A stretch of DNA of 64,000 bases from Pelagicoccus sp. SDUM812003 (GTDB lineage: Bacteria; Verrucomicrobiota; Verrucomicrobiia; Opitutales; Opitutaceae): contig NZ_JARXHY010000006.1 of assembly GCF_031127815.1 (NCBI RefSeq), positions 248,001-312,000 on the forward strand, read 5' to 3'. Shown one piece after another: positions 17,580 through 46,845 of the stretch. The first letter of the stretch is position 1; each line of letters starts with the position of its first letter. The notes beneath the pieces are model-generated. The model made no database searches. It was not told where the DNA came from and saw nothing but the letters and a program-made list of their open reading frames with translations. Both the position numbers and the translations under genes were made by a program.

Positions 17580-17595
17580 TATATCTAAGGTTATA
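17580..17595. promoter_or_regulatory. Candidate operator, copy 1 (16-bp near-palindrome)
   Basis: TATATCTAAGGTTATA, with the fully conserved right half AGGTTATA. It lies 124 bases upstream of the sensor-kinase start on the - strand. See the finding on the shared operator. Confidence 0.55.
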
Positions 17596-17642
17596 GGGAG
17601 TGGTCTGGAATGGCGTCCTCGGGAGGGGGTGGTTGCTTTATA

Positions 17643-17658
17643 TATAACTTAGGCTATA
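17643..17658. promoter_or_regulatory. Candidate operator, copy 2
   Basis: TATAACTTAGGCTATA, differing by two bases from the consensus TATGACTTAGGTTATA. It is 63 bases from copy 1 in the same kinase upstream region; a degenerate further half-site (GTTAGGTTATT) occurs near 17797-17807. Confidence 0.55.
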
Positions 17659-17845
17659 GGTATTCGCCGCTAAAATGTCTTGAGCGAAAGGAGTTTTATA
17701 GAGATCATATGTTCGCATTCAGGGTTCGGGTTTCGTGTTCGGCAGTCACTTGCTTTATGCGCCCGTCGATCGCTGGATAATGATATTATATTTCTAGTTA
17801 GGTTATTCGGTTTGTTGATTGTAAGATCTTCCGCTGAATATATCG

Positions 17846-17882
17846 GAAGTCGCGGTTCGTCGTTCTAGCGAACCGCGGCTTC
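17846..17882. terminator. Strong hairpin downstream of the polytopic membrane protein gene
   Basis: A 14-bp stem with one G-T pair (17846-17859 with 17869-17882) and a 9-base loop begins 58 bases past the - strand gene's stop. The T-rich tract lies on the + strand side (TTTCGTTTT), so for the - strand gene it may act only as an RNA-stabilising stem or a weak terminator. Confidence 0.55.
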
Positions 17883-17940
17883 TTTCGTTTTCTGGTCGAT
17901 GCTGCCGGTCGCTTGCAGAGCAAGGTGGCAGCCTTATGGT

Positions 17941-20322
17941 TCAAGGGCCGCCGTACTCGGAGGAGCGCAGTCGCGCCAGCTCGCGGAGTTCGAGGTTTGG
18001 AAAGCCCAGCTCGTAGCGTTCCAGAAGGCGTCTCAGATGATAGGTTTGCAGCGGGGTCAGCTGATAAAGTCCATCTTCGCTCATGGTATCGACACAGGCC
18101 TGCAATTCCTGTTTCGCGAGCTCGTGGCGTTTGCCTAGGGCGAACACTATCGCTCTCAGCACGCGCCGATCCCAATCCCTGGAGGCGAACCCTTCTTCGG
18201 CATCGCGGGCCAGCCTCTCCAGTTTCATGCGAAATCCTCTCATGTCTCGAGTCAGAGCGTAGGCGAACGCTTGTCCGATCGCGGCGTTGGGATCGTTGGG
18301 GTAGGATTCGGCTAAGGCCTTGGCGGCGAGGTTCGCGGGCTCGTCCCGATTTGCCTCCGCGAAGTATTCCGCGAGGCGACTCAAGGAGAGGGCCGAGTCT
18401 TGGTCCGGAGACATTTCGAAGACGGCGAGCTTTTCGGTTTCGTAGCCCGGGATCGCAGGAAGCGGGTAGGGAACGGGTCGGAGGTAAAGGGGGAGCAGCC
18501 AGCGCAGCAGCCGATGGTAGAAGGTGCTCTGATCTTCCGTTGCCGGAGCCTTGACCAGCATGGGCAGCACCGGGTCCCAAGAGGGCAGGACGATGTGCGT
18601 GACCTCGTGACCGTCGAGCACCGCCTCCGCTTCCGTCGATTCTGGGGAGCTGAGCACGCGGACCGCCGCGAGCTGCCCAGGAAAGGATTCCCAGGCTGTG
18701 GACATGATCGCGCGGCAACCGCCATGAAAGATGATGGAGTCGGAGAACTCGGGCGGAGCCAGCGCGATCGGATCACGCGTGGGGTTGTGGACCGCCAGCC
18801 AGTGCGAAAAATGCCGTTGGATCAGGGTTTCGACGTCAGAAGGGCGGGCCAGCGACTCTTGGTCCGGTCTCTTCAGGTAAGCGGGCAGCGATCTTCCCCA
18901 TGCGAAGAAGCCGAAGAGAAGCACGCACCCGATCACGCCTGCGATGCTTCGAGCGGCGCGGGGCAAGCCAGCGCTCACGAAGGAGCAAAGAAAGATCAGG
19001 GCGAGCAGGGAAAGGGCGAAGCCCCATTTTATCTTGAAAACCGTCAGCAGCCCGACCGCCGCGAAGCCTGTGGCGACGGGCAGAGCGGAATTCAGTGACC
19101 CCCAGGCGTCTGTCTTGGAGCGGGATAAGCAGTAGGCGATGGCCGCGAGGGCGGTCAGGGCAGGCAGTCCGGCCAGGAGGACCGTGGTGAATTCGGCGCT
19201 CGCGATCCAGCTGAATAGGTTTCCGTAGATGCGGGTCTGATCGAGCGAACTGGGCCGAAGAAGCGAGGCGCTTGAAAACAGCCAACCCGAGTAGCCGTGG
19301 CTCAACTGGGTGTATGCGAGCGGCGCCATCAGAAGAAGGCCGAGGGCGCCCAAGGCGATGGAGCGGACGCGGGAAAAGCTTTGAAGCAGCATGCTTTGCC
19401 AAGCCCCTAGCAGCATGCCCAGTCCGAGCCAGGCCAGGGGGTAGACGGGGTGCAGGTAGCGCAACTCTCCCGCGGAGCTCTCTAGGGGATTGGCGTCGAT
19501 GAGGCAGGCCAGCAGGCTTAGACCGACGCCGCAAAGCGTCCACCCCCAGAACGGTCTTGGAGTTTTGGTAGCCAGCAGGTCAACGGCTTTGGCGGCGACG
19601 ATGACCAGCAGGACGCTGAAGCCGATCGCGGGATCAAGCCACAGGGACAGGGCGATTGCCAGGGCGTTGAGAGGACCTGGCTTAGGAGGCTGCGTGGAGT
19701 CCTTGGTCGGTATCAGTTGAGCGAGAGCCAGAGAAGCGAGCAGAAACGCCCCGATCTCCGGACTCAAGCTACCGGGTATGAACTGGGCCGAAAAGGGAGG
19801 GAAAAGGGCGAAGAAGAGGCCTGCTGCGGTGGCGAAGATCGCTCCATATCGTTTCCAGACGAACGCCGAGAGTCCGATGAATGCCATGCCGTGAGCGATA
19901 AGCGGCTCCCACAAGGCGGCCCTTTCTACCGCGATGCCGAGCGAGTGGTCGGTCATCAGGTGAATGATCCAAGCGATGCTCGCGAGCCAGAAGGCGTAGA
20001 GCCTGGGCATCAACTGCGGCCGACCGTCTTGCGCGGAGTCTCCCAGGTAGGGGTCCGAGCTGAGCAAGCCTTCTTGCAAGAGCTCTTGGGCGTAGGCGAT
20101 CCAGCGGTAGGTTTCGCCGCGGTTGGTGACTCCCAGAAAGTGTCGCTGCCCGAATTGGTAGCCGGTGGGGGAGCTTGCGTCGAGTTCCGGAGGCGGGTTG
20201 CCTTCGAGGCTCAGGTCGCTGGCCCAGCGGAGGTGCGAATGGTCGACGCGCAGCATCAACATCAGCGTCAGCAGCATCGCCGCGGCGCAGAGAGTCTGGA
20301 TCCAGGGAAAGGTGCGTTTCAT
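17941..20322 (-). CDS. Polytopic membrane protein, possibly GT-C-like, with soluble C-terminal domain
   Basis: I do not recognise this 793-residue protein with confidence. The first ~500 residues contain roughly ten to twelve hydrophobic helices. The first is at the N-terminus, followed by a large non-cytoplasmic loop of about 100 residues; the overall plan is that of GT-C-fold, lipid-linked-sugar glycosyltransferases (STT3/PMT/ArnT-like). The last ~290 residues are soluble and the final part (from about 645) looks helical and TPR-like, with AKALAESYPNDPNAAIGQAFAYA. I cannot point to a diagnostic catalytic motif, so the GT-C idea rests on topology alone. It starts 36 bases after the giant FG-GAP/ASPIC gene, in an apparent two-gene operon. 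A link to surface glycosylation or display of that protein is possible but unproven. Confidence 0.6.
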   Translation of the reverse strand: MKRTFPWIQTLCAAAMLLTLMLMLRVDHSHLRWASDLSLEGNPPPELDASSPTGYQFGQRHFLGVTNRGETYRWIAYAQELLQEGLLSSDPYLGDSAQDGRPQLMPRLYAFWLASIAWIIHLMTDHSLGIAVERAALWEPLIAHGMAFIGLSAFVWKRYGAIFATAAGLFFALFPPFSAQFIPGSLSPEIGAFLLASLALAQLIPTKDSTQPPKPGPLNALAIALSLWLDPAIGFSVLLVIVAAKAVDLLATKTPRPFWGWTLCGVGLSLLACLIDANPLESSAGELRYLHPVYPLAWLGLGMLLGAWQSMLLQSFSRVRSIALGALGLLLMAPLAYTQLSHGYSGWLFSSASLLRPSSLDQTRIYGNLFSWIASAEFTTVLLAGLPALTALAAIAYCLSRSKTDAWGSLNSALPVATGFAAVGLLTVFKIKWGFALSLLALIFLCSFVSAGLPRAARSIAGVIGCVLLFGFFAWGRSLPAYLKRPDQESLARPSDVETLIQRHFSHWLAVHNPTRDPIALAPPEFSDSIIFHGGCRAIMSTAWESFPGQLAAVRVLSSPESTEAEAVLDGHEVTHIVLPSWDPVLPMLVKAPATEDQSTFYHRLLRWLLPLYLRPVPYPLPAIPGYETEKLAVFEMSPDQDSALSLSRLAEYFAEANRDEPANLAAKALAESYPNDPNAAIGQAFAYALTRDMRGFRMKLERLARDAEEGFASRDWDRRVLRAIVFALGKRHELAKQELQACVDTMSEDGLYQLTPLQTYHLRRLLERYELGFPNLELRELARLRSSEYGGP

Positions 20323-20358
20323 GGGAGGAGGGAGGGCGAGGCGTCGTTTTTTTTGAAG

Positions 20359-23300
20359 CTATGGCTGATTCGGTTTGATCAGGAGCCAGTCTTTGTCGTT
20401 CTCCGGCGCGGGGTGGGTGGACTGCGAGCCGTCGGGCCACTGGACGCGCGCTCTGACCAGCGGATTCTCGTCTTGGCTGGCGACATGAAGACGAGGAGCG
20501 CTTTGGCTGTGCCAGCCGCCGCCCAGCCCGATTTCGTAGTAGCGGGCGCGACCATCGGCAAATTCAAGCTCGATGCTGGCTCCTACGCCCTTGGAATTGC
20601 CGGAGCTGTCTTGGAGGGCGATCGTCAGCCAATCCGCATCGGTCTGGCTCTGATTGATCAAGCAGAGGCTGCTGCCGGCATGCTGCGTGATGAACAGGTC
20701 CGGTTTTCCGTCCTTGTTGGGATCCACGATGGCTTGGGCTCGACCATTTCCAGTCACGACGTAGCCGGATTCGAGCGGTTCCAGGGCGGCGAAGGTACCG
20801 TCGCCCAGGCCTTTGAGGTATAGGCCGACCCCGCCTTGGGAGCGTGGCATGGTGGTATCGGTGTTTTGGCTGAGTCCGAGGTCTGGAATGTTGTCCCCGT
20901 CGAAGTCGGCTGCGACCAGTCCGATCACGGGACCGATTTGGGCTACGGGAGGAAAGGGCTGGAAGCGGTAGTCGCCACCGACCTGGCTGAGAAAGAGACC
21001 GGATTGGAAGTTGTCCGCTTCGAAGCGCTGGGCTTTTTCCAGAGCGGATGAGCCGAAGACCTCCGCCAAAGTGGCCTTCGCGTAGTCGTTGGCGCTCGGA
21101 TAGGCGCGCTTCACGAAGGGGAGGTAGGCGGCGAGATCGTTGAGCGATCGCAACGGATAGAGCTTTCCGGCGTCGTGCTCCGCTTCCGCGATCATGCGGG
21201 TGCCGTTTTGAGCGAAATCGCCGTAGAAAAGCAGAGCCGGTTCCTCGGGGCTGGCCTCATAGGTGGTGTTCAAGCCCAGGTTTCCCACCGCGAAGTCCAG
21301 TCGGCCGTCGAGGTTGAAATCGGCCGCCGCGATGCCGTTCCACCAGCCTTTGCCCCCGTCCAGAAAGCCGGCGGCCGCGCTTTGGTCGGCGAAGGCGCCG
21401 TCTCCCTCGTTTCTGAAAAAGCGCACGCTGTCCCACTCCAGGGAGACGATCAGGTCGATTCGTCCGTCCCGATCCACGTCCCGAAACAGGGCATCCTTGA
21501 CCAAGCCGACGTTTTTCAAGCCTCGGCTCTGATCGGAAATGTCGGTGAATCGTCCGCCATCGTTTCTGAGAAGGTAGCTGCGAGGCGTCTCCGGATAGCG
21601 ATCGGGGATCGAGCGCCCGCCCAGAAAGAGGTCGAGATCTCCATCGCCATCGATGTCGCCTGCAGCGGCCGCGCCCGCATTGAGCGGAAGGGAGGGGAAG
21701 TCGGTTTTTGAAAAAGCGCCGCGTCCATCGTTCAGGTAGAGTTTGGTCGCAAAGGCGTCGGGCCATTTTGAACCCTGAGAGCTGGATGTCGTGACGAGCA
21801 GGTCGGGGCTACCGTCTCCATCTGCATCGAAGAGAAGACTGGGGCCTGTTTCCAGAGAGGTCTTGAAGGTTGCAGGCAATGGCATTTCTTTGTATCCGCC
21901 TTTTGCGTACACGAGCAGTCTGGCGGGCGAGCCAGTCGTGGCGCCGAGGAAAATATCATCGATCTCGTCTCCGTTGACGTCTCCGACTGCAATTGAGGGG
22001 CCAGCTCGATCGGTTCGAAAAGGGATGAACGCTTGCTCGCTGTCTGGCACTTGAGGCTCTGAGGCATCTTCGAATTTGAGGCCGAAGCTCTCGCTCGTCT
22101 CTGCGAAGAGTGGAGGCTCTGTCGACGGAGGGGGCGGTTGCGTCGTTTTATCCTCCTTGATGGTGAAACTATGGTTGACCGGGAGATCCTCGTACGTTTG
22201 CAGCGTCCCAGATGGCCATTGAACGGTGAGGCGATCAATGCGTTGATCGTCGCCCAATCCGAAATGAGCCACAAGTTCGCTGCCCGAAGCGTATCCGCGG
22301 GTCACGACCATCGCACGGGTCTGTTGTCCGCAGGACGCGCTCTCGATCCGCACTACCGCGCCCACCCCGAAGTGGTTCGAAGGATCCCCTTGCAGGTAGA
22401 TCTTAACGCGATTCCCGTCGGTAGACCGATTTTCGAAGAGGCTGAGATTGTCGTCGAGATTGATGTAGGCGATGTCCAGGTCGCCATCTCCGTCGAAGTC
22501 CGCGGTCACGGCTCCAAAGGCCACGCCGACTTCATCCAGCCCCCATTCCTCAGCGACGTTCTGAAAGCCCTCTCCCTGAAGGTTTCTGTAGGCAAGGTTG
22601 GCTTCGTTCAGCACCGGAGAGCGCTTCATGATTCCGATTCGTTGCATGTCCGACAAACCACGCATCATGCGAGCGAGCAGATCGCTATTGTTCGCTTCCC
22701 GAATCATTCCGTTGGTGACATGCAGGTCCTCCCAACCGTCGTTGTCGAAATCCTCGAAACGCACGGACCAGGTCCAGTCGGTCGCTTCCAGTCCAGCCCA
22801 GCAGGCCGCTTCGCGGAAAAAGTCCATGCCTGTGCCCATGTATAGGGCGTTTCGGGTGTACTGCGGAGCGATGCCCTCGGTGGTGCCTTCTCGCAGCATA
22901 TCGTTGCGCGAGGCGGCTAGTCCGCGGCGATCCCGCTCACGTGTCGTAGTCGCCATGTCGGCGGCGAGCAAATCGAAGTTTCCGTCCTTGTTGATGTCGC
23001 CGATATCGGCTCCCATGGAGGAGTAGGGCGTGTTGTGGAAGCTCTGGTTTAGAACGTTGGTGAAGGTGCCATCCCCATTGTTACGATAGAAGTAGTCGCC
23101 CTCGGAAAAGTCGTTGCAAAGGTAGAGATCCGGCCAAAGGTCCCCGTTGTAGTCGAACCAGGTCGCCGCATGGCCGAAGGTGATGGCGTCGATGCCCGCC
23201 TGCTCGGTGACTTCCACGAAACGACCGTCGCCCAGATTGCGAAACAGCCGGTCCGGACGACCCGTCGGTTCGGTTCCATCTACTTGATTTGTAAGCAGTA

Positions 23301-23931
23301 GCATGTCCACCCAACCGTCGCGATCGTAGTCCGAAAAGGCTCCCACCACGCTGCCGTCCACGATGGCCAGGCCGCGCTTTTCCGCTTCCTCCTCGAAGGT
23401 GCCGTCGCCTTGATTGATGTAGAGCAGATTGGAGGCGTTGTTGCGACAGACGTAGAGATCGAGCCAGCCATCGTTGTTGACATCGACGAAGGTCGCACCC
23501 TGCCGCCAAATCACCGAATCATCCGACTTGAACCAGCTGAAGAGGGAGCGTCCCTCGTCCAGGCCGGCCTTTTCGGTGACGTTTTCGAAAGTCCAGTCCC
23601 CTCGGTTGCGAAAGAGGATTCCGGGCTTGGTCTTGATGCTCACGAACAGATCGACGTTTCCGTCCCCATCGTAGTCGCCTGCCGCTAGACCTGAGCCCAT
23701 GGCTCCACCCATGTACTCGCGGTAGCGACTAGACCACATCAGTGGATCGTCGTAGGGATTCATGGCCTGGATGCCGGTGGACTCCGCGGATCGCTTCGCA
23801 AACAGCGAGCCACCGTCGTTCTCGATACGAGACTTCAGAGGAGCCTGGGAAATGGTCGCACTCGACGGCGAAGCGAACACGGCGGTTAAGCCTGCGAAAA
23901 GGATAGAGCGAGCGCCTGGGGTGAATCTCAT
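20359..23931 (-). CDS. Large secreted FG-GAP/VCBS-repeat protein with ASPIC/UnbV domains
   Basis: A 1190-residue exported protein. It is built of many calcium-binding-like FG-GAP/VCBS repeats with motifs such as DYDGDGNVDLFV, DVNNDGWLDLYV and DFDGDGDLDIAY, arranged as two beta-propeller halves. Each half ends in an ASPIC/UnbV domain, the first with GVGAVVRIES and VQWPSG near residues 580-630, the second at the C-terminus with VGASIELEF and VQWPDGS. I chose the ATG at 23931 over one 96 bases upstream because it begins a clean signal peptide (RFTPGARSILFAGL). Such proteins are abundant in Verrucomicrobiota and Planctomycetota, often beside TonB receptors, but their function is unproven. It diverges from the TonB receptor gene, with a candidate operator between them. 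Confidence 0.87.
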   Translation of the reverse strand: MRFTPGARSILFAGLTAVFASPSSATISQAPLKSRIENDGGSLFAKRSAESTGIQAMNPYDDPLMWSSRYREYMGGAMGSGLAAGDYDGDGNVDLFVSIKTKPGILFRNRGDWTFENVTEKAGLDEGRSLFSWFKSDDSVIWRQGATFVDVNNDGWLDLYVCRNNASNLLYINQGDGTFEEEAEKRGLAIVDGSVVGAFSDYDRDGWVDMLLLTNQVDGTEPTGRPDRLFRNLGDGRFVEVTEQAGIDAITFGHAATWFDYNGDLWPDLYLCNDFSEGDYFYRNNGDGTFTNVLNQSFHNTPYSSMGADIGDINKDGNFDLLAADMATTTRERDRRGLAASRNDMLREGTTEGIAPQYTRNALYMGTGMDFFREAACWAGLEATDWTWSVRFEDFDNDGWEDLHVTNGMIREANNSDLLARMMRGLSDMQRIGIMKRSPVLNEANLAYRNLQGEGFQNVAEEWGLDEVGVAFGAVTADFDGDGDLDIAYINLDDNLSLFENRSTDGNRVKIYLQGDPSNHFGVGAVVRIESASCGQQTRAMVVTRGYASGSELVAHFGLGDDQRIDRLTVQWPSGTLQTYEDLPVNHSFTIKEDKTTQPPPPSTEPPLFAETSESFGLKFEDASEPQVPDSEQAFIPFRTDRAGPSIAVGDVNGDEIDDIFLGATTGSPARLLVYAKGGYKEMPLPATFKTSLETGPSLLFDADGDGSPDLLVTTSSSQGSKWPDAFATKLYLNDGRGAFSKTDFPSLPLNAGAAAAGDIDGDGDLDLFLGGRSIPDRYPETPRSYLLRNDGGRFTDISDQSRGLKNVGLVKDALFRDVDRDGRIDLIVSLEWDSVRFFRNEGDGAFADQSAAAGFLDGGKGWWNGIAAADFNLDGRLDFAVGNLGLNTTYEASPEEPALLFYGDFAQNGTRMIAEAEHDAGKLYPLRSLNDLAAYLPFVKRAYPSANDYAKATLAEVFGSSALEKAQRFEADNFQSGLFLSQVGGDYRFQPFPPVAQIGPVIGLVAADFDGDNIPDLGLSQNTDTTMPRSQGGVGLYLKGLGDGTFAALEPLESGYVVTGNGRAQAIVDPNKDGKPDLFITQHAGSSLCLINQSQTDADWLTIALQDSSGNSKGVGASIELEFADGRARYYEIGLGGGWHSQSAPRLHVASQDENPLVRARVQWPDGSQSTHPAPENDKDWLLIKPNQP

Positions 23932-24077
23932 GTGGTTTGGTTCAGGGAAAATCGACGCTTGAATCAGGCTGGATTGGAGCGGGGCGGCCAGCATTTCGCG
24001 ACGATGTAGGCGGTGAATGATTGGCATGCTGAAAATGCCGCATTTAGGTGCAACCTGACATTGGTTATATCTTAACT

Positions 24078-24093
24078 TATGACCTAGGTTATA
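24078..24093. promoter_or_regulatory. Candidate operator, copy 3, between divergent FG-GAP/ASPIC and TonB-receptor genes
   Basis: TATGACCTAGGTTATA is the best palindrome of the set (7 of 8 base pairs symmetric, as 7-2-7 half-sites). Extra half-sites flank it: GGTTATA at 24063-24069 and TATAACT at 24101-24107, so several dimers may bind. It is 147 bases from the FG-GAP/ASPIC start and 267 bases from the receptor start. I saw no gene in the rest of the 23932-24359 interval. Confidence 0.6.
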
Positions 24094-24359: not shown

Positions 24360-27300
24360 ATGATAAACAATATGCCTCATAAGCTTATAAAGCCTGCCGG
24401 ATGCGTCCTCGCTTCGGTAGTTTTGCCTGTGGCGGTGATGGCTCAGAGTGGTGGCAGCGAAGTCGACGAAGAAGAAGTGTTCACACTGTCTCCTTTCGAA
24501 GTATCCGCTGACGCCAATTCCGGCTACTCCGCTGCCACTACCCTGGCTGGCAACCGTCTGCAGACTGAGCTCAAAGACCTGGGAACCTCCCTTTCGGTTT
24601 ACACCGAGGAGTTCCTCAACGACATTGGCGCTACCGACAACAGCACCTTGCTGAAGTACACGCTCGGAACCGAAGTCGGCGGCGTGTATGGCAACTACTC
24701 CGGCTCCGGAGGGGGAACCGATCCTAACACCAGCGCCTCCCTCAGCCCTCAGTCGACTAACCGCGTGCGAGGCTTGGTCTCTGCTGACAACACCCGCAAC
24801 CTCTACCTCTCCAGCATTCCTTGGGATGGATACAACGTGGATGGCGTAGACATCCAGCGTGGTCCTAACGCGATCCTGTTCGGACAAGGCAGCCCCGGCG
24901 GTGTGATCAACACCCGCATGAAGGAAGCCCAGTGGGACAACTCCAACCAGGTTTCCATCCGTATCGACGAATACGGTAGCGTGCGCGCTTCAGTCGACCT
25001 CAACCGCGTATTGATCGAGGATCAACTGGCGGTGCGCTTCGCGGCAGTGGACAACAATGCCAAGTTCAAGCAGGACCCGGCCTTCGATGACATCCAGCGC
25101 CAGTACTTCACTGTCCGCTACGAGCCGGAATTCCTGAAATCGGAAAACGCCCGCTCGATCTTCAAGGCGAGCGTCGAAATGGGCGACGGGGAGAGCAATC
25201 GTCCCCGCAACATGCCGCCGAAGGATCGCGTCACTCCGTTCTTCACTGATCTGGACAAGCAACTCTTCGACGTGGCTTGGGGAAATGACCGCACGTTAGA
25301 GATTCCAGGACGTGGCGCTGCGGAGAGTCAGGACTGGGACAACAATGCGAATCCTAATTACGTAGAGAGAATCGGAAATCAAACCAATGGCACTGGCTAC
25401 GCTGGTTACTTTGGTGGCTCGATTTTCTATTACATGCCGGGTGAGTCAGAACCGGTGTTCGGACTAGCCCCGAATGCCGTTTCCTACCTCGGGCTAGATT
25501 CTACTGGAGAACGCGACGGAACAATTGGCGGTCTCGCCAATGGAAATCCTCATGGACTCGGTGGCTATCGCGAATACGCCCAGTACAAAGGCCTACCATT
25601 CGCAAGTTTGACCAAGGACAAGTTCATCACTGATCCCTCCATATTCGATTTCTACAACAACCTGCTCGATGGCGACATCAAGCGTGAGTGGCAGAATTTC
25701 GATTCCGTGGAAGCTTCCTTGAGCCAGACCTTCTTCGGCGATACCATGGGCTTTGACATCGGTTACCATAAAGAGAGCTACCTCTCTGGTGGATACAACC
25801 CGGTGCAAGATACACTCAACATCGATGTTAACAGCCGTTTTGCTGATGGTTCCAATACCCCAGAAACGGGCTGGTATACCGATGGCACCGTCAACCCAGG
25901 CGCGGGCCGCGCATTCGTCCGTCTCGGCAATGCCAAGGGCGAGTCCGTTACGGATCGCGAAAGCTGGCGAGCGACTGCCTTCTTCTCACACGACTTCAAC
26001 AAGGCAGATGGAAACTGGCTGACTCGCTTCCTCGGCAAGCACACCATCACCGGAATGGGCTCCAAGGACGAGTATCTGAACACTTCGCAAAGATGGCGTT
26101 CCAGCACCTTTGTCGGTGATTACTACCAGCATCCACAGTTTGCAGAGATCAAGGACAACAACGGCCGTTTCTGGGCGGACTTCGTGCCGATGCAGAATGT
26201 CTACCTCAGTGGAAATCTGCAAGGAGCGACGCTTGGACAAGATCTCGGAATTCGGTATCCGACCGCAGCTCCGCAGTTTGCGGACACCATGAACCTGCGT
26301 TACTTCGACTCCACTTGGATTCACCCAACGGATCCGGAAGCGGCAGGTTATGTCGACCCGGGCGCAGTTTGGTATAACCAAATATCCGCTGGTACTGAAG
26401 GTGGTCCAGTCGAGTCAACACAGTCAGAGAACCCCGCCAACTATGTCGGATGGGGCACACGCCAAGTTCGGCTTATGACGGATTCGACCGCTCAGAATCG
26501 CGATTTCCTCACCGAAAGCCGTGCCTGGGACGATCGCTACAACGATGCCTACGCCTTTGTTTGGCAGGGTAAGTTCTGGGATGATTCCCTCGTAGCTACT
26601 GCTGGTATTCGTAACGACGAAGTCGGGCAGGTACGCACCACTTGGGAAACGGACGATTCCGCAGTTTATCCAACTGAAATCCCTTACACGGTGAACGAAA
26701 CGGGACCGTTTGAAGAAGAGTCGAAGAGCTGGGGCTTGGTTGCTCACTTGAACGATCTGCCATTCCTTGGCGAGGTGGTCGACAAGCTGCCAGTCAACGT
26801 CAGCGTGTCGTACAACAAGTCCAACAACTTCCAGACCGGTCAGGTCTACGTGGACTATTGGGGTCAACCTTTGCCGCTTCCTGAGGGTAACACCGAGGAT
26901 ATGGGCATCATGGTCGCGACCAAAGACGGCAAGTACTCGGTTAAGCTCAACAAGTTCGAATCTGACGTGCAGAACAACGTGGGCACCGGTTTGGCTTTCT
27001 GGCTCTACGGAAACAACATCGGCATCTACGCTTCTGCGTATCACCAGCACAAGTACAACTACGAGGTTCGCGGTAATCCCGATAGCACTCGTCATGGAGA
27101 TGGCATCATATCAAATCTGCCAGCTCCTACTAACGAGAATCCAAACCGGAGATGGAACTTCGACTACCAGCCTTTGGACGGACAAACTCAGGCTGAAGCC
27201 GAAGCCCTCGAAATCGCAGTTATCAATGCTTATGACCAATGGCTTGAGGAGATGGCTCCTCTGCCGCAGTTGATGGCGGAAGCTTGGAGCTTCGCTTGGG

Positions 27301-29435: not shown

Positions 29436-29436
29436 G

Positions 29437-36092: not shown

Positions 36093-39000
36093 ATGCCCCA
36101 TCTATCCCGAATCATTGCTAAGTCGTGTCTCGTCGATCGCTGTGCGCTTCCGCTCGTTGGGCGGATCGCGCTCGCGGTATCCGCTCTCTTCGTTGTCCCG
36201 TCGCTGCTGGCATGGCAATCTGACAACGGGGACGGAACGTTCAGCAATCCGGTATTGTACGCGGATTACCCCGATCCGGATATCATTCGAGTCGGCGACG
36301 ACTTTTATATGGTTTCCACCACTTTTGTCGATGTGCCCGGAATTCGGATACTGCACTCTCAAGATCTCGTGAACTGGGAAATCGCAGGCCATGCAGCGAT
36401 CGAGGTCGACGGGGGCGAGGCTTACGACCTAGAGGGCGATACCGCCTACCGAGGCGGCTATTGGGCTTGCAGTCTGCGCCATCATGACGGGACCTTCTAT
36501 GTGCTGGTGAATCCCACCTTCGGCAATGCTCGCCTCTACTATGCGGACGACGTGAGCGGAGACTGGCAGTATCATCAGCTTGATCGCCCCGCGTACGATC
36601 CGGGGCTCTTCTTCGACGACGACGGTACCGGCTACATCGTCAGCGGCCACTCTCGAATGACCTTGATGGAACTGAGCTCCGACTATTCCAGCGTGGTGTC
36701 GCAGACCAACGATGTCTTCGACGCAGGCGGCGAGGGCGCTCATGTGATCAAACGCGGCGACTACTACTACGTTTTCAACGCCAATCCGACTGTATGGCCA
36801 TTTCAACTACGGTGCTCGAGAGCTACGGACCTGCAGGGACCTTGGGAAACGGGGCATGTAGTCCTCACCGCGACCACCGGCGGGCATCAGGGCTCGGTCG
36901 TGGAGTTGGCGGATGGTAGCTGGTTCGGCTTTGTGCACCAGGACAGCGGAGCGATCGGCAGAATGCCCAATATCGGACCTGTGTTTTGGGAAGACGATTG
37001 GCCAGTGTTCGGAACGCCCGACGCGCGTGACCAGATCGCGGATACCTACGAGAAGCCGATACTCGGCAAGGCGATTGCCCAGCCTGCGACCTCCGATGAC
37101 TTTACTTCCTCAGAACTCGGTCTGCAATGGCAATGGAATCACAACCCCGACGCCAGCAAGTGGTCCCTGTCGGAACGATCTGGATACCTGCGACTGAAAC
37201 CTTCGCAGGCGGATCGTTTCTGGACAGCCAGGAATACGCTGACTCAAAAGGGGCAGGGTCCAGAGAGTCACGGCATCGTGAAGCTGGATGTGAGCGCCTT
37301 GCAGTCGGGCGATCGGGCGGGCATCGGCACGCTAGGCAAGGTCAACAGCAACATATTCGTCAGTGTCGATAGCGAGGGCAGCAAGACGCTGCGATCCAGC
37401 ATGGATCACCGTGGTGTGGGCGCCCATGATGGAGCGGTGCCGATCGCGCTGGAGAGTGACACGGTCTATCTCCGCGTCGACTTGGACTTCGTGGAGGAGC
37501 TCGGCATGTGTTCCTATAGCTACGATGGGGAGTCGTGGACGCGTTTCGGGGGGATCTTCACCTTGGGCTTCGACATCACTCACGCCACCTTTCAGGGCCA
37601 GAAGTTCGCCCTCTTTTGCTATAATACGGAGACCGATGATAGCCCCGGCTACGTGGATGTAGACTCGTTCACCTTTGGCGAAACCGCGGATCAGGTCACG
37701 CTGCAGCGCGGCTGGGCGGTTTTGAACGAAGCGGGCACCACCTTCGTGGCGGATAACGGACAACTGATACGCGGACCTTTCGCCTCTACCGAATGGGGTA
37801 ACCCGCCGCCACGAGAGAATCTCGCCAAACTCAAAGAGCTCGGACTTAACGCGGTGCACCTCTACGGCGAGGTCTTCGATCCGGATTACCCCGCTGAAGG
37901 AAGCCAAGCTCCAGGCTATTCGGCTGCCCGCATGGATAGCATGGTGGAAATGACGCGGGAGCTGGGTCTCTACCTGGTCATCACCATCGGAAACGGAGCT
38001 AACAACGGAGACTACAACTACGACTACATCATCGATTTTTGGGATTTCTACGCTCCACGCTACGCGGACGAAACCCATGTGATTTTCGAAATCCAGAACG
38101 AGCCAGTGGCCTGGACGCCACCGTATTCACAGGCGGTGCTTGATATGGAGGTGGACGCCTACAATACGATTCGTAGCCACGCGCCGGATACGCCGGTTCT
38201 GCTCATGACCTATGCGGTCTTGTCGAATTGGAACGCGGCGTTGAGCGACCTTTCGAAGATTCACGATGACATCGATTGGAGCAATGCGGCGGTCGGTTTC
38301 CATGGATACGCGGGCCACGAAGAGACGCCGCCTGCCTTGGAGGAGATCTTGGACGCGGGCTATCCTATGTTTATGACGGAGTTCACCACCTCTGAGTGGG
38401 GCTACAGTTTGGATCACATCGATCTGGAAATGACCGCCACCCTGGAGCGCTTGCAGATTTCCTGGCTAAACTTTCTCCATGTTCCGCCCAACTTTATCAA
38501 CGAAGCCATCAGCGACCCCACCGCCTACTCGGACATTGTCAATCGCTCCGGCCTCGGATGGGTGCCCGACTATGGGGATTGGCCGCAACAACGCGGCGTA
38601 TTCGGAAATCAAGGACTGCCACGAGAGACAACGAGCGAGTGGGTGAATGACAAACTGACTGGAACGCTGCGCGTGGAAGCGGAGGATTTCGACACCGGCG
38701 GCCAAGGCATCGCGTACAACGATCGGGACTCCGAGAATAGCGGCGGTCAGTACCGGCTGGAAGAAGGGGTCGATATCCAAAGCGTGAGCGATGGAGGCAG
38801 CGCTTATGCGGTGACTTCGACCGAGTCCGGCGAGTGGTTGGAGTATACGATATTTGCCAAGGAGCCTGGCTTGTACACCTTCAGGTTGCGCTATGCCTCG
38901 AATGTATCCGACGGAGCGATACGAGCGGATTTCAATGGCGTCGATGCGACGGGAGTGGTCGATCTATCCAGCACCGGCGGCTCTGGCAATTGGAGCTCCA

Positions 39001-40661
39001 TCGAGGAGGAGGTCTTTCTAGACTATGGGCAGCAGAAGGTACGGTTGAGCATTGAGTCTGGGGGAGTACGTTTGAATTGGTTCGAGCTGACTCCGGTTTC
39101 GAATGGGCCGATCGCTGATGGAACCTACCGCTTCGTGAATCGAAAAAGCGGGCTTGCCGCCGGTGTCGACCTCGGCTCCTACGAGCTGATTCAGGAGGCC
39201 TACGAGGGCGACGCCCAGGAATGGGAGGTGACTCATCTGGGAGCGGGCAACTATCGCGTGACCTGGGTGAACCAGAGCTTGAACTGGAGCATTGGACTCG
39301 AGCAAAACAACGATGATCCGGTGGAGGTGGTGCCTTGGAGCGACCTTACTCGCTTCCGGCGAATGCTGGTGGTGCCTTCGACGGACGGCTACTATCGAAT
39401 CCGTAATGCCGCGAGCGGTTTGGAAACCGTGCCTCTAGGCGCTTCGGTGGAGCAGGACGCTGGCTTGGTGCAATACGTTTTCGACGGCAAGCCGCATCAC
39501 TATTGGGCGATACAAAGCGGATCCGAAGCGCCTTTCCCGACGGGACTGACGTTAGACGTCGCGAACGACGGATACGAAGTGAGCTGGAGCGCGGTGGAGG
39601 GAGCGGATAGCTACTCGGTCAAGCGTTCGAGTACGCCCGGCGGACCCTATGCGGTCATCGCCCAAGGAGTGACGGATACCCGCTACAAGGATCAGGACGT
39701 GACGATCGGCGAGATCTGGTACTATGTGGTCAGTTCGAAGAGCGGCGCTACGGAAAGCCCCATCAGCGCTGAGGTAGTGGCCAATCCGCCTCGCTTGTTC
39801 GCGAGCTTCCCGCTGGATGAAGGCAGTGGCGTCGCGGTTTATGACGACTCCGGCTCTGGTTGGCAGGGTGAGCTCATGAATGGGGCGACTTGGGCTGAGG
39901 GCCGAGGCGGCTCGGTGGTCGAGTTCGACGGGACCAACGACCACATTCTACTCTCGCAAGGGATTATGAGCGAGCTGACGGATCTCACCCTCTCGGTGTG
40001 GACGTATCTCGATGCCACCCCGACTTGGTCGCGCATCATCGACTTTGGCTCGGGAACAGGAAACTACATGTTCATCACCCCGAGCGGGGCGGGAGGTGTC
40101 GCGCGGTTCGCTATGACGATCGGTTCTGGAGAGCAGTTGATCAACGGGCCCGAGGCGCTGCCAATCGGCGAATGGGTCCATGTGGCGGTGACCTTGCAGG
40201 GCTCGACCGGGATACTGTATGTCAATGGCGAGGAAGTGGGGCGCAACGAGGAGATGTCGATCACTCCCCAGGATTTGGGCGTCACCACGCAAAACTACAT
40301 TGGCAAGTCTCAATGGCCCGATCCTCATCTCGATGGCAAGGTCGACGATCTTCGCATCTACTCGAACGCGTTTGATGCGGACGGGGTTCTGGCGCTGTTC
40401 GAGGAAGAGCCGCGTCCTCCTATCAGCGAGCAGGAGCTGGCGTCTCCGGGCATCGTCGTGTATGACTCCGTGGCCTACGTGATCATCGAGGAAACGGTTC
40501 CAGGCCGCGGCTACCAGCTGGAGGTTTGCCAAGACATCAGCGATCCGATTTGGGAAGCTGTCGGCGGGTTCAAGATCGGCGACGGAGAGGAGCTGACGCT
40601 TGAAATGCCTTGGACTGAGGAACGCGTAGCAGGATTTTTCAGAGTCCGACTACGAAAGTGA
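36093..40661 (+). CDS. Giant secreted multi-domain enzyme: GH43, GH5-like, CBM6, ricin-like, FN3 and LamG
   Basis: A 1522-residue exported protein with two catalytic units. After a signal peptide (about 1-40) comes a GH43 propeller (about 45-330; YPDPDIIRVGDD and YDPGLFFDDDG motifs) followed by a concanavalin-like beta-xylosidase C-terminal domain (about 335-530). A second, GH5-like TIM barrel (about 535-850) has acid/base Glu670 in FEIQNEP and nucleophile Glu763 in MFMTEFTTSEW. Binding modules follow: CBM6 (about 859-1000, FDTGGQGIAYND), a ricin-type trefoil-like module (about 1007-1145), an FN3 domain (about 1148-1230), a LamG domain (about 1233-1435) and a short C-terminal beta domain. It could trim side chains and cut the backbone of one polymer. 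It is divergent from the XylR-like gene. The backbone polymer (xylan, glucan or mannan) is not settled. Confidence 0.87.
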   Translation: MPHLSRIIAKSCLVDRCALPLVGRIALAVSALFVVPSLLAWQSDNGDGTFSNPVLYADYPDPDIIRVGDDFYMVSTTFVDVPGIRILHSQDLVNWEIAGHAAIEVDGGEAYDLEGDTAYRGGYWACSLRHHDGTFYVLVNPTFGNARLYYADDVSGDWQYHQLDRPAYDPGLFFDDDGTGYIVSGHSRMTLMELSSDYSSVVSQTNDVFDAGGEGAHVIKRGDYYYVFNANPTVWPFQLRCSRATDLQGPWETGHVVLTATTGGHQGSVVELADGSWFGFVHQDSGAIGRMPNIGPVFWEDDWPVFGTPDARDQIADTYEKPILGKAIAQPATSDDFTSSELGLQWQWNHNPDASKWSLSERSGYLRLKPSQADRFWTARNTLTQKGQGPESHGIVKLDVSALQSGDRAGIGTLGKVNSNIFVSVDSEGSKTLRSSMDHRGVGAHDGAVPIALESDTVYLRVDLDFVEELGMCSYSYDGESWTRFGGIFTLGFDITHATFQGQKFALFCYNTETDDSPGYVDVDSFTFGETADQVTLQRGWAVLNEAGTTFVADNGQLIRGPFASTEWGNPPPRENLAKLKELGLNAVHLYGEVFDPDYPAEGSQAPGYSAARMDSMVEMTRELGLYLVITIGNGANNGDYNYDYIIDFWDFYAPRYADETHVIFEIQNEPVAWTPPYSQAVLDMEVDAYNTIRSHAPDTPVLLMTYAVLSNWNAALSDLSKIHDDIDWSNAAVGFHGYAGHEETPPALEEILDAGYPMFMTEFTTSEWGYSLDHIDLEMTATLERLQISWLNFLHVPPNFINEAISDPTAYSDIVNRSGLGWVPDYGDWPQQRGVFGNQGLPRETTSEWVNDKLTGTLRVEAEDFDTGGQGIAYNDRDSENSGGQYRLEEGVDIQSVSDGGSAYAVTSTESGEWLEYTIFAKEPGLYTFRLRYASNVSDGAIRADFNGVDATGVVDLSSTGGSGNWSSIEEEVFLDYGQQKVRLSIESGGVRLNWFELTPVSNGPIADGTYRFVNRKSGLAAGVDLGSYELIQEAYEGDAQEWEVTHLGAGNYRVTWVNQSLNWSIGLEQNNDDPVEVVPWSDLTRFRRMLVVPSTDGYYRIRNAASGLETVPLGASVEQDAGLVQYVFDGKPHHYWAIQSGSEAPFPTGLTLDVANDGYEVSWSAVEGADSYSVKRSSTPGGPYAVIAQGVTDTRYKDQDVTIGEIWYYVVSSKSGATESPISAEVVANPPRLFASFPLDEGSGVAVYDDSGSGWQGELMNGATWAEGRGGSVVEFDGTNDHILLSQGIMSELTDLTLSVWTYLDATPTWSRIIDFGSGTGNYMFITPSGAGGVARFAMTIGSGEQLINGPEALPIGEWVHVAVTLQGSTGILYVNGEEVGRNEEMSITPQDLGVTTQNYIGKSQWPDPHLDGKVDDLRIYSNAFDADGVLALFEEEPRPPISEQELASPGIVVYDSVAYVIIEETVPGRGYQLEVCQDISDPIWEAVGGFKIGDGEELTLEMPWTEERVAGFFRVRLRK

Positions 40662-43271: not shown

Positions 43272-44216
43272 TCACTCCTCGATTTCCGCTTCGTCCTCCA
43301 TGACGTCGACGACTTCCAGTTCGCCCATGGAGACGTCGCCGGGCAACAGGTTGCGTTTCAGTCTTCCGGATTCGTTTCCGAAAAGGCTGGACGCCGCTCG
43401 AGCCATGTTGGCGAACTCCTCGTCGAAACTTCTGCCCCTCGCCCTAATGCTGAATCGCGTGATCCAGAGCAGATTCTTCTCTTTGGATTCCACAAGTTTC
43501 CTGAAGTCGTAGGCTTGCAGGATTACGAAGTAGCGCTCGGTCTCGATCTCGGCTTCGAGGTCGTTCAGGATGTTGCGTTGCGGCCCTAGGATAGGCCCCA
43601 TGCTGTAGTAGTCGACCAGCGTGGGCGCGTATCCGAGCAGCTGCGCGTTGTACTCGTTGGCCTTGCGCCTGGCGCGTTCCGCCATGTCCTGCAGGAGCAG
43701 CATCGTTTCCAGTTCTCCGATGGACTGGCTCATTTCGGAGCTTTGTTCCGCTGTGAGGCTTCCGTCTGATCCGATGTCGCTGTTGATGCTGTTGATCGAA
43801 TTCATGGCGTTCGCCATCTCGTCGATGGCGACGTTTCTGAAGCCGTCGTGATGGGGGATCGTCTTTCCCCAGTTCAGGACGATGAGCAGGTCGGTCTTTT
43901 GGGGGTCGGTTTCCGGCACGTAGTTCTCTTCCGCCAAAGCGGTCGCGATATGGTTGGCCAACTCCTCCTGGCTCAGGGCGATCAAGGATTCGTCCTTTTC
44001 GGTGGGGTCGATCAGTTTGCCAATTCCCAGAGCGTAGGTCTCCGGCTTCCATTGACCGTCTTCGAGCCGCTCGCGTTGGTAGAGCGGACTGACCACCGAG
44101 TGGGCGACGGTGCGTGGTGGCTTTTTTTTCACTTCCTTTGCGAACAGCCCGGGAGTGGAAAGAGTCAGTGCGGCGACGCAAAGGAGCGGCAGGGCGAGCG
44201 GAGTTGCTTTATTCAT
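43272..44216 (-). CDS. Secreted protein of unknown function
   Basis: A 314-residue protein with a signal peptide (ending near Ala26) followed by a basic patch (KEVKKKPPR). I do not recognise the family. The first part has the pattern DLLIVLNWGKT, a strand-rich fold that recalls lipoprotein-like domains of the DUF4136 type. The middle (about 130-190) is helical and rich in Met, Asn, Ser and Glu. The end (about 215-270) is strand-rich again, with RYFVILQAYDFRKLV. The C-terminus is very acidic (VVDVMEDEAEIEE). The gene is alone, convergent with GH95 and divergent from a GH43 gene, with a candidate operator in the divergent gap 174 bases from its start. Function unknown. Confidence 0.72.
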   Translation of the reverse strand: MNKATPLALPLLCVAALTLSTPGLFAKEVKKKPPRTVAHSVVSPLYQRERLEDGQWKPETYALGIGKLIDPTEKDESLIALSQEELANHIATALAEENYVPETDPQKTDLLIVLNWGKTIPHHDGFRNVAIDEMANAMNSINSINSDIGSDGSLTAEQSSEMSQSIGELETMLLLQDMAERARRKANEYNAQLLGYAPTLVDYYSMGPILGPQRNILNDLEAEIETERYFVILQAYDFRKLVESKEKNLLWITRFSIRARGRSFDEEFANMARAASSLFGNESGRLKRNLLPGDVSMGELEVVDVMEDEAEIEE

Positions 44217-44389: not shown

Positions 44390-44405
44390 TATGACTAAGG
44401 TTATA
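44390..44405. promoter_or_regulatory. Candidate operator, copy 6
   Basis: TATGACTAAGGTTATA, one base from consensus, lies in the 603-base divergent gap between the unknown secreted-protein gene and the GH43 gene (414 bases upstream of the latter). Apart from this and one hairpin, I see nothing gene-like in 44217-44819; it is A/T-rich between 44570 and 44660, where the GH43 promoter is likely. Confidence 0.6.
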
Positions 44406-44724
44406 ACAAGATGATTACGATCATTGGCTTGTGTGGTTCCGTTTCATTTCGCTTCATGATTTCTGCCGTTTTCACATCGGAGCAGGGGGTTCGTTCTCTG
44501 TTTCGATTTCCCTCCTCGTTCGTCACAACGCTGCTCTCGCGTGCAGGCCTTGTAGCGTATTCCCCCCTTTTTAGTGAAATGCCGCAGTTCTTAATGGTTT
44601 TTGAAAATCTAGAATCGCGAGCCTGGTTCTTGTTTTATATAAAATATATATAGTGAAAAGACTTCTTAACGATAAGGTCGAGTTTGCTTTTCTCGGTTCC
44701 TATCGGTTGCCCCAAGTATAAATG

Positions 44725-44756
44725 CTGCAGTCTTCGTAAGCGAGCGAAGGCTGCAG
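44725..44756 (+). promoter_or_regulatory. Leader hairpin upstream of the GH43 gene
   Basis: A 12-bp stem with one G-T pair (44725-44736 with 44745-44756) and an 8-base loop lies 63 bases before the start codon. No T run follows, so it is not a plain terminator. If transcription starts in the A/T-rich region near 44630-44660, this stem would be in the 5' leader and could protect the mRNA or affect translation. Confidence 0.45.
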
Positions 44757-44819
44757 TCGCTTGTAACGGCTGTGGACGTGACCTTCTCTGTTCGAGATGA
44801 ATGTGATTTAAGATATATT

Positions 44820-46496
44820 ATGATAAAGTATAAGCGATTCGCGCTGAGCCTTGGGTTGAGTTCAGTCTTTATTTCGAGTTCGATGGCGACGCCTGAAGCG
44901 GTGGCATTTGACTGGTTCGAATACTCGGGGCACGACAAGACGATCAGTCGCGTTGTGGAGCCTGGCCAGTTTCACAATCCCATTCTATCAGGTTTCTACC
45001 CGGATCCGAGCATTTGCAGGGCGGGCGACGACTACTATCTGGTGAATTCCACCTTCGCGTATTTTCCAGGACTCCCGATCTTTCACAGCAAGGACCTGGT
45101 GAACTGGAAGCAGGTGGGGAACGCCATCGATCGACCGAGCCAGCTGACCTACGATGGGCTTGAGGTGTCTATGGGCATCTTCGCACCTGCCATAACCTAT
45201 CACGACGGGCTCTTCTACTTGATCTGCACTCATGTGACCCGCGAGGGCAACTTCGTGTTGACTGCGGAGGATCCTGCGGGACCGTGGTCCGACCCGTACG
45301 TCTTGAAGTTTCGCGGTATCGATCCATCGCTCTTTTTCGACGACGATGGACGGGCTTGGATCGTGAACAACGACGATCCGGAGGGCGAGCCCTTGTACGA
45401 GGGCCATCGAGCTATCCGCATCCAGGAGTTCGATCTTGAAGCCATGCAGGTCAAGGGTCCGCGCAAGGTGCTGGTGAATGGAGGTGTAGACATTTCGACC
45501 AAACCGATTTGGATCGAAGGGCCGCACCTTTATAAGAAGGACGGCTGGTATTACCTTTCGGCAGCCGAAGGTGGCACCGGTCCAGGCCATTCGCAGGTGG
45601 TTTTCCGCAGCAAAAAAGTGGATGGTCCCTACGAGCCTTGGGACCGGAATCCGATCCTCACCCAGCGCGGTCTGCCGGACAAGGTTTTCGGAGCGGTGAC
45701 TTGCACTGGCCATTCCGACTTGGTCGAGGGGCCCGACGGCAAATGGTGGGCGACCTTCTTGGGAGTCCGCCCCTACGACGGCTCCGCTTCGCCTATGGGA
45801 CGTGAGACCTTTCTCATGCCTGTGGAGTGGACCGAGGACGGCTGGCCGACGATCTTGCCCGTAGACGAACGGGTGCCTCTCTATCTCGACGCTCCTGGAG
45901 GGGCGGTGGTTGAGACATCGGAATCGCTTCCGCTGTCTGGCTCGTTCACCTGGCGCGACCAATTCGACAGCGGCACGCTTTCGAAGGCTTGGATCATGCT
46001 CCGCGCGCCCTCCGAGCAATGGTGGAGCTTCGAGCAGGGCTGGGAGGGCAGCGTGGCCATCGCTCCGAGGAAGGCGACCCTGAGCAGCAAGGAAAACCCC
46101 AGCTATCTCGCTCGTCGCGTGCAGCATCACGAATTCTACGCTGAAACCTTGATGGAGGTTCCGAGCGAAGAGGGCGTATCCGCAGGGCTTGCCCTGTTTC
46201 AAAACGATCGTTTCCACTACTTCCTCGCGGCGCGGAGGCTCGGGCAGAAAAGCATCCTCAGCCTGGAGCGCGTGAAGGATGGAGAAACGGAGGTCTTGAA
46301 CGAGGTCGAGGTCGCGAACACGGACAAGATCGCTCTTCGAGTGGAAGGAGACGAGGATCTGTGCTCCTTTGAATACGCGGTGAAGCCGGACGCCTGGCTT
46401 ACGCTGGCGGCGAATCTGGATGCTCGAATGATAACGACTGCTGTCGCGGGTGGATTCGTCGGGGCTACGGTCGGAATGCATGCGCGGCTCGACTGA
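44820..46496 (+). CDS. Secreted GH43 enzyme (GH43_12-like beta-xylosidase/alpha-L-arabinofuranosidase)
   Basis: A 558-residue enzyme. I chose the ATG at 44820 because it begins a proper signal peptide (IKYKRFALSLGLSSVFISS); an ATG 48 bases upstream adds charged residues in front of it. The propeller (about 50-360) has the GH43 catalytic acids: Asp62 in FYPDPSI, Asp168 in GIDPSLFFDDDG and Glu233 in IEGPHLYKKDG. The C-terminal ~190 residues form the concanavalin-like domain that helps shape the active site in this GH43 group. It most resembles enzymes that release xylose or arabinose from oligosaccharides. It has no partner genes; candidate operators lie on both sides (44390 and 46830). Confidence 0.9.
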   Translation: MIKYKRFALSLGLSSVFISSSMATPEAVAFDWFEYSGHDKTISRVVEPGQFHNPILSGFYPDPSICRAGDDYYLVNSTFAYFPGLPIFHSKDLVNWKQVGNAIDRPSQLTYDGLEVSMGIFAPAITYHDGLFYLICTHVTREGNFVLTAEDPAGPWSDPYVLKFRGIDPSLFFDDDGRAWIVNNDDPEGEPLYEGHRAIRIQEFDLEAMQVKGPRKVLVNGGVDISTKPIWIEGPHLYKKDGWYYLSAAEGGTGPGHSQVVFRSKKVDGPYEPWDRNPILTQRGLPDKVFGAVTCTGHSDLVEGPDGKWWATFLGVRPYDGSASPMGRETFLMPVEWTEDGWPTILPVDERVPLYLDAPGGAVVETSESLPLSGSFTWRDQFDSGTLSKAWIMLRAPSEQWWSFEQGWEGSVAIAPRKATLSSKENPSYLARRVQHHEFYAETLMEVPSEEGVSAGLALFQNDRFHYFLAARRLGQKSILSLERVKDGETEVLNEVEVANTDKIALRVEGDEDLCSFEYAVKPDAWLTLAANLDARMITTAVAGGFVGATVGMHARLD

Positions 46497-46829
46497 TCGC
46501 CTCCGTTGTCCGACAGGCAGATTGTTTCCAGGGAGAGCGACTGTGTTGTTCGCAGCTTCGCTGGTCTTCTGGCGACTGGACCGTAGCGATTGCCGGGAGG
46601 GCTGCGCCTTGTTCGGAAGAACGGGAAGGCTGCTATTCGAACGCTGCTCCTCATCGCGAATGCTACGCCCCTTCGTCTGTTTCGTTTCGACGACACCGGT
46701 CCTGATTCGGAGAGTGGCGCAGCTCGCTATAGCATTTTGTCGGAGACTGACTTTGGATAATCCCCTCTGTTTTGAATCAATCAGACTCTCGTCCCTATGC
46801 TGCTGTTTTCACGGTCTAGAAGCTGTCTC

Positions 46830-46845
46830 CAATACTTAGGTTATA
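46830..46845. promoter_or_regulatory. Candidate operator, copy 7
   Basis: CAATACTTAGGTTATA, with an intact right half and a weak left half. It lies more than 300 bases after the GH43 stop and over 1 kb before the next recognised gene, so its target is unclear; it may point to an undetected transcript in this interval. Confidence 0.45.

What the first reader, a model, noticed from the sequence alone, without database searches (positions are those of the whole stretch)
17580..46845. A shared 16-bp near-palindromic operator at seven non-coding sites
I find copies at 17580, 17643, 24078, 35799, 35926, 44390 and 46830. Five share the right half AGGTTATA exactly and four share the left half TATGAC; the consensus is TATGACTTAGGTTATA. 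All lie outside genes. Six are in upstream regions of sugar-related genes: the sensor kinase, FG-GAP/ASPIC and TonB receptor, XylR-like regulator and GH43-GH5 giant, and a GH43 enzyme. Such recurrence in gaps is unlikely by chance and points to one regulon. The binding protein could be the NarL-type regulator or the XylR-type regulator.
Basis: seen in the sequence. Interest (0 to 1): 0.78.

Follow-up and report, generated by a model that had tools for sequence, protein, structure and literature searches.

The report
NarL-type operator of arabinoxylan gene cluster
A short mirror-image DNA tag is repeated in front of sugar-digestion genes of a probably verrucomicrobial bacterium, and it is very probably the docking site of the response regulator encoded in the same cluster, which suggests how such bacteria switch on plant-fibre degradation.

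Summary
The repeat is real. Six of the seven sites match TATGACTTAGGTTATA within 3 mismatches (shuffles 0.08); 35926 is only a half-site and 46830 fronts no clear gene. The 16-mer is an inverted repeat of two heptamers two bases apart (TATRACY-NN-RGTYATA), the "7-2-7" arrangement known for NarL.

TAYNNCYNNRGNNRTA lies upstream of the sensor-kinase/NarL-type-regulator operon in 18 of 29 orthologous loci (0.06 expected), and in 7 of 13 loci fetched later (0.03 expected). It is there in 10 of 14 such genomes without an XylR orthologue. In five same-genus genomes, the own one included, 29 of 52 sites lie within 75 kb of a kinase gene (1.9 expected). In relatives, sites also front GH43-CBM6, GH43-GH5, esterase, TonB, ASPIC and XylR genes.

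The kinase sensor is predicted to fold like the propeller sensors of Bacteroides hybrid two-component systems. Unlike those, the regulator is a separate NarL-type protein and the operator a palindrome. Most likely an autoregulated arabinoxylan-type regulon; binding, ligand and sign of regulation are inferred.

The parts
17580..17595 (-). 7-2-7 operator (read on - strand TATAACCTTAGATATA), 132 bp upstream of the kinase start
17643..17658 (-). 7-2-7 operator (TATAGCCTAAGTTATA on - strand), 194 bp upstream of the kinase start
24078..24093 (.). 7-2-7 operator TATGACCTAGGTTATA between divergent ASPIC (58 bp) and TonB-receptor (274 bp) genes; best score in the window
   Evidence: the TonB/ASPIC gap of G006 (L086:17550) holds the perfect palindrome
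35799..35814 (.). 7-2-7 operator TATGACTGAGGTTATA between divergent XylR (96 bp) and GH43-GH5 (286 bp) genes
   Evidence: same gap in L089 and L094; in L086 and L088, where the two genes are not neighbours, each has a site in front
35926..35941 (.). half-site TATGACC (second heptamer not conserved); weak
   Evidence: score 14.4; 5 mismatches to the consensus
44390..44405 (.). 7-2-7 operator TATGACTAAGGTTATA between an unknown gene (43272-44216 -, 182 bp) and a GH43 gene (374 bp)
46830..46845 (.). degenerate operator CAATACTTAGGTTATA, no clear target gene
13751..14383 (-). NarL/FixJ-type response regulator (receiver + GerE domain), proposed binding protein
14358..17456 (-). sensor histidine kinase: predicted propeller sensor, Y_Y_Y-like module, HisKA_3 + HATPase
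17941..20322 (-). conserved unknown protein between ASPIC and kinase genes
20359..24027 (-). FG-GAP/ASPIC protein, predicted target
24360..28046 (+). TonB-dependent receptor (plug domain), predicted target
34370..35710 (-). XylR-like LacI/AraC regulator, predicted target
36093..40661 (+). GH43-GH5-CBM multidomain enzyme, predicted target
43272..44216 (-). unknown protein, predicted target
44772..46496 (+). GH43 enzyme, predicted target

Best explanation
The sites are operators of the NarL-type response regulator at 13751-14383. The kinase at 14358-17456 senses an oligosaccharide in the periplasm with a propeller sensor like that of Bacteroides hybrid two-component systems and phosphorylates the regulator. 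The regulator dimer binds 16-bp inverted repeats (TATRACY-NN-RGTYATA) upstream of its own operon and of the TonB-receptor, ASPIC, XylR, GH43-GH5 and GH43 genes, and most likely activates them, with positive autoregulation. The gene content suggests decorated (arabino)xylan. Shown by computation: the sites, their symmetry, their conservation upstream of this operon and near the corresponding targets, the sensor fold (a predicted model), the domain types. Inferred: binding by the regulator, phosphorylation, ligand, activation rather than repression.
For: Six full sites against 0.08 by shuffle. Pattern TAYNNCYNNRGNNRTA within 450 bp upstream of the kinase in 18 of 29 orthologous loci, the window included (dinucleotide shuffles 0.06, max 1; elsewhere in the same loci 12 in 583,381 bases, 0.01 per region; 0 of 5 more distant kinase/regulator loci). 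Later-fetched loci: 7 of 13, 0.03 expected from mononucleotide shuffles. A matrix trained on the window's own genome finds, at score 16 or more, 22 intergenic and 2 coding sites in 285 kb of four relatives' clusters, against 0.2 and 0.5 for permuted matrices, near the corresponding genes. Sites cluster at kinase loci in five genomes: 29 of 52 within 75 kb, 1.9 expected; without the own genome 22 of 41, about 1.6 expected from the same per-genome figures. 7-2-7 geometry as described for NarL (passages of PMC7419079, PMC4549865, PMC2718512). Operator upstream of the kinase in 10 of 14 genomes without an XylR orthologue. Receiver + GerE domains, D60 and K110 invariant in 21 sequences. Best PDB matches of the sensor model are BT4663, BT4673 and BT3049 sensors (best E 2e-32).
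Against: No binding or expression data. 11 of 29 and 6 of 13 loci lack a strict match (some have near matches or an operon-head site instead; L214 gave only 60 bases, none of them upstream). One of the 18, L058, is a poor palindrome (3 of 8 pairs). The loose consensus is not enriched genome-wide over a reversed control, and in G003 and G006 the symmetric pattern is not either (11 vs 10, 8 vs 8). Co-variation of operator with recognition helix is not specific: partial Mantel r 0.24 for helix given receiver and also 0.24 for receiver given helix. The own-genome paralogue (L047) has no such site upstream. XylR absence rests partly on incomplete genomes (G021, G219, G232, G277 under 90%), and in G017 a 27% XylR-family paralogue lies next to the kinase.
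Confidence: 0.82

Rival explanations
1. The XylR-like LacI/AraC regulator (34370-35710) binds the sites.
For: It lies in the cluster; its orthologue loci carry a strict match beside the gene in 7 of 8; in G017 a 27% paralogue lies next to the kinase.
Against: Operator upstream of the kinase in 10 of 14 genomes whose best XylR homologue is 32% identical or less (7 of the 10 are at least 90% complete). The 12 loci of 28-31% paralogues carry a pattern match in 1 of 12, about 1.4 kb off. AraC-type domains are expected to bind direct repeats; the AraC-type HTCS motifs of Bacteroides are direct repeats (PMC3878776 passages).
Confidence: 0.07
2. Another regulator of the genome binds (a LacI-type protein as found beside operator and TonB gene, or another NarL-type paralogue), and the kinase operon is only one target.
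For: LacI-family genes flank the site in L046 and L101, and a gene of the same length in L103; the own genome holds at least 32 matches to the regulator.
Against: Strict matches sit upstream of the kinase in loci from 10 genera (handles and genera, matches). Whether a LacI gene is constant beside the site was not checked systematically.
Confidence: 0.08
3. Chance AT-rich palindromes or a promoter element (-10-like TATAAC).
For: Loose consensus not enriched genome-wide; the half TATAACC resembles a -10 hexamer.
Against: Matrix and later-fetched tests; palindromic on both sides, whereas a promoter element would be one-sided.
Confidence: 0.03

Closest known systems
NarL/NarP of Escherichia coli and their 7-2-7 sites
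   Same: Receiver + GerE regulator; inverted heptamers two bases apart; HisKA_3-type kinase partner.
   Different: Heptamer here is TATRACY (NarL TACYYMT, recalled); sensor is a predicted propeller protein, not a nitrate sensor; predicted targets are carbohydrate genes. The NCBIfam NarL model matches at 154 bits against a cut-off of 250.
Hybrid two-component systems (HTCS) of Bacteroides, e.g. BT4663, BT3049
   Same: Predicted propeller sensor (BT4663: E 2e-32, TM 0.53 by query and 0.71 by target), location among polysaccharide genes.
   Different: Kinase and regulator are separate proteins; DNA-binding domain is GerE, not AraC; operator is a palindrome, not a direct repeat with long spacer. 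PMC3878776 (passages) calls HTCS unique to Bacteroidetes; the review PMC10766802 (passages) also speaks of HTCS in Cellvibrio and Ruminiclostridium, of AraC/XylS type.
AbfS/AbfR of Cellvibrio japonicus (recalled; one search found no paper on it to read)
   Same: Split two-component system for xylan side-chain enzymes (recalled).
   Different: AbfS sensor is a PAS-type domain (recalled); operator not known to me.

Membership tests
NarL/FixJ (LuxR-type) response regulators | receiver domain plus GerE helix-turn-helix | tested here: met
   Pfam Response_reg 4e-25, GerE 8e-21
NarL/FixJ (LuxR-type) response regulators | conserved phospho-acceptor Asp and Lys | tested here: met
   D60 and K110 invariant in the 21 sequences of A1; their role is recalled knowledge
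NarL/FixJ (LuxR-type) response regulators | inverted-repeat operator of 7-2-7 type | tested here: met
   (sequence only, no binding shown)
NarL/FixJ (LuxR-type) response regulators | phosphorylation-dependent DNA binding | not testable with these tools
   needs protein work
Bacteroides HTCS | propeller + Y_Y_Y periplasmic sensor | tested here: met
   AlphaFold model mean pLDDT 82.2, best PDB matches BT4663, BT4673, BT3049; Y_Y_Y in 13 of 27 members at E up to 1, 0.087 for the window's kinase
Bacteroides HTCS | kinase, receiver and AraC-type domain in one chain | tested here: not met
   kinase ends after HATPase (924-1016 of 1032); regulator separate, GerE
Bacteroides HTCS | direct-repeat operator | tested here: not met
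   palindrome
XylR (LacI/AraC) regulon | operator restricted to genomes with the regulator | tested here: not met
   operator upstream of the kinase in 10 of 14 genomes without the orthologue

The most novel reading that the evidence does not exclude
A family-wide class of polysaccharide regulation in these bacteria: Bacteroides-HTCS-like propeller sensors wired to separate NarL-type regulators. Paralogous sensor/regulator pairs in one genome would use diverged 7-2-7 operators (for example TATAACC, TATGACT, TATGCCT, TATTCCC, TACGACT halves), so that the heptamer acts as an address for each glycan cluster. A Gly or Ser just before the recognition helix would go with TAT or TAC, as in NarL (Ser and TAC, recalled).
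Probability: 0.35. Interest if true: 0.65.

Novelty: new variant of a known kind. Interest (0 to 1): 0.52.

Why it matters
It gives a candidate regulator, operator and target list for polysaccharide use in a group for which my paper searches (narrow queries in an open-access library) listed no such regulon. It also shows the sensor type of Bacteroides hybrid systems joined to a different output, so the operator can be used to predict regulons in relatives.

Tried and rejected
XylR as the binding protein: rejected on presence/absence, with the caveats given. Genome-wide enrichment of the loose consensus: not found. Co-variation of operator and recognition helix as proof: significant but no stronger than for the receiver domain, so not used as proof. 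The rule that Gly/Ser before the helix sets the third base as T/C: 20 of 21 Gly loci have TAT and 4 of 4 Ser loci TAC, but I chose one site per locus there (two for the window; for L055 and L058 the operon-head site, leaving out L058's kinase-upstream match, which begins TAC; L064's site is not kinase-upstream; L212 and L218 were left out because no helix was read), the Ser loci fall in one clade, and L219, a later-fetched Gly locus, has TAC. Different ancestry of kinase and regulator in the window: RR tree support only 81/75, dropped. The C6:247381 match lies inside signal-peptide codons of a GH43-CBM6 gene and is left out of the target list, though it is counted among the 52. Places C3:29192 and C27:7297 were not followed. 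The named genome scan gave 80 mostly distant regulators and was used only to place relative G049.

Rows left out before counts: L064 (no kinase on the contig) and L078 (truncated kinase). In one search, a partial second kinase match of G006. The 29 loci include near-identical pairs (L050/L051, L055/L059), so they are not 29 independent cases.

The prediction for the later-fetched loci was noted, after the fetch but before the sequences were examined. The general pattern was shaped, so one search is not an independent test.

Full report
The observation. The window (57% G+C; G000:C6:248001-312000 of a 5.75-Mb assembly) holds six matches to TATGACTTAGGTTATA with at most 3 mismatches, 0.08 expected by dinucleotide shuffling (its seventh row is 24078 read on the other strand). 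The seventh reported site, 35926, is a half-site. Five of the six full sites lie 58-374 bp upstream of start codons; none of the seven named genes starts within 600 bp of 46830. Gene types were assigned by Pfam.

Symmetry. Pooling 30 sites of the own genome and four relatives (score 17 or more) gives, on both sides, T A T A/G A C C/T with 23.7 bits in all (both strands pooled, so the symmetry of the table is by construction; single sites such as L084:9194 and L086:17550 are perfect palindromes). That is two heptamers in inverted repeat with two bases between, the arrangement described for NarL (passages of PMC7419079, PMC4549865 and PMC2718512). The NarL heptamer letters are recalled.

Genome-wide. 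The symmetric pattern TATNACYWWRGTNATA with one mismatch gives 11 places against 3. In the eight genomes of the genus, the five with the kinase give 52 places against 31 for the control (G003 and G006 alone show no excess); the three without a kinase match (G002, G004, G005) give 10 against 15. Of the 52, 29 lie within 75 kb of a kinase gene, 1.9 expected; without the own genome 22 of 41. The signal is thus local, not genome-wide.

Conservation upstream of the regulator's own operon. The regulator was sought in 95 genomes and stretches around the better matches were fetched. TAYNNCYNNRGNNRTA occurs within 450 bp upstream of (or 60 bp into) the kinase gene in 18 of 29 orthologous loci, the window included, 0.06 expected from dinucleotide shuffles; it occurs 12 times in the remaining 583 kb of these loci and in 0 of 5 loci with more distant kinases. 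Kinase starts are my choice of start codon. The kinase alignment then found 25 of 250 family genomes with the kinase at E 1e-180; 13 loci not seen before were fetched and 7 carry the pattern, 0.03 expected from mononucleotide shuffles. Three of the 13 had shortened stretches at contig ends (L213, 490; L219, 308; L214, 60 bases, none of them upstream). In three same-genus loci without a good palindrome before the kinase (L055, L058, L059), kinase and regulator follow ASPIC and the unknown gene on the same strand and an operator lies before ASPIC.

Targets in relatives. A matrix trained only on the window's genome finds 22 intergenic and 2 coding sites (score 16 or more) in 285 kb of the corresponding clusters of G001, G003, G006 and G007; permuted matrices give 0.2 and 0.5. 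These stretches were chosen to span known hits, so the count is somewhat favoured. Sites lie between TonB and ASPIC (L086), between XylR and GH43-GH5 (L089, L094; in L086 and L088 each gene has a site of its own), between the unknown gene and an esterase (L085, L089, L094), and before GH43-CBM6 enzymes (L085, L087, L090). In the own genome, further sites precede a GH97 gene (C6:195002) and TonB genes (C8, C2). GH43, GH43-CBM6, GH5 and esterases together suggest decorated xylan; that is inference.

Which protein binds. XylR orthologues (39% identity or more) are found in 8 of 58 genomes, all 8 with the kinase, and in G040, G058 and G103 of the 17 genomes, which were chosen for having the kinase or regulator. 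The other 14 of those 17 have only paralogues of 32% or less; 10 of these 14 (G013, G017, G049, G096, G194, G208, G219, G232, G265, G277) carry the operator upstream of the kinase, and G021, G063, G150 and G249 do not by the strict pattern. Some of these genomes are incomplete (G219, G232 and G277 among the 10), and G017 has a 27% paralogue next to its kinase. The palindrome also suits a GerE-type dimer better than an AraC-type domain. The NarL-type regulator is therefore the best candidate. The heptamer differs between regulator subgroups, but helix and receiver distances explain this equally well, so this is only a lead.

The sensor. AlphaFold with 27 orthologues gives a mostly confident model (mean pLDDT 82.2, pTM 0.68): a long beta-rich sensor, then helices and a kinase core (two propellers, a Y_Y_Y-like module and a membrane helix are my reading). 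Foldseek's best PDB matches are the sensors of BT4663, BT4673 and BT3049 (BT4673 at low TM-score), Bacteroides HTCS for heparin, pectic galactan and arabinan (PMC3878776 passages). There HTCS are said to be unique to Bacteroidetes, with AraC-type domains and direct-repeat motifs; a later review (PMC10766802 passages) also names HTCS of Cellvibrio and Ruminiclostridium, AraC/XylS type. Here the system is split, NarL-type and palindromic.

Literature. Nine searches were made. By their titles, the listed papers (15 of 23, 15 of 40) include none on this operator or on NarL-type control of polysaccharide genes in Verrucomicrobiota; searches listed nothing. I saw only passages of five papers; PMC10766802 has no occurrence of NarL, LuxR or Verrucomicrob in its main text. 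The library lacks most subscription journals.

Taxonomy. Relative G049 has a contig of 56,459 bases, the length of JACRKC010000079.1, a Verrucomicrobia MAG with a 60% identical regulator; Verrucomicrobiota is thus likely for the window, family not determined.

Noticed in passing
window 17941-20322: Conserved 793-aa protein without Pfam or NCBIfam match, kept between ASPIC and kinase genes in several relatives.
   Followed up: partly
window 43272-44216: 314-aa protein without family; orthologues (53-55%) lie divergent to an esterase across an operator in G001, G006 and G007.
   Followed up: partly
L047:9067-12758 (C6 of the own genome, just before the window): Paralogous kinase/regulator pair (regulator 55% identical, helix GTVKRHIAN) without the operator upstream.
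   Followed up: partly
L046:8773-9801, L101:4891-5925, L103:9573-10607: LacI-family genes (L046 and L101 by Pfam; L103 by length and position only) sit beside an operator and a TonB-receptor gene.
   Followed up: no
window 1-722 and C6:247316-248000: GH43-CBM6 gene runs across the window's left edge; an operator-like 16-mer lies inside its signal-peptide codons.
   Followed up: partly
window 13751-17456: Nearest kin of the regulator (L050, 78%) and of the kinase (L056/L058, 58%) belong to different paralogue groups; tree support for a swap is weak.
   Followed up: partly
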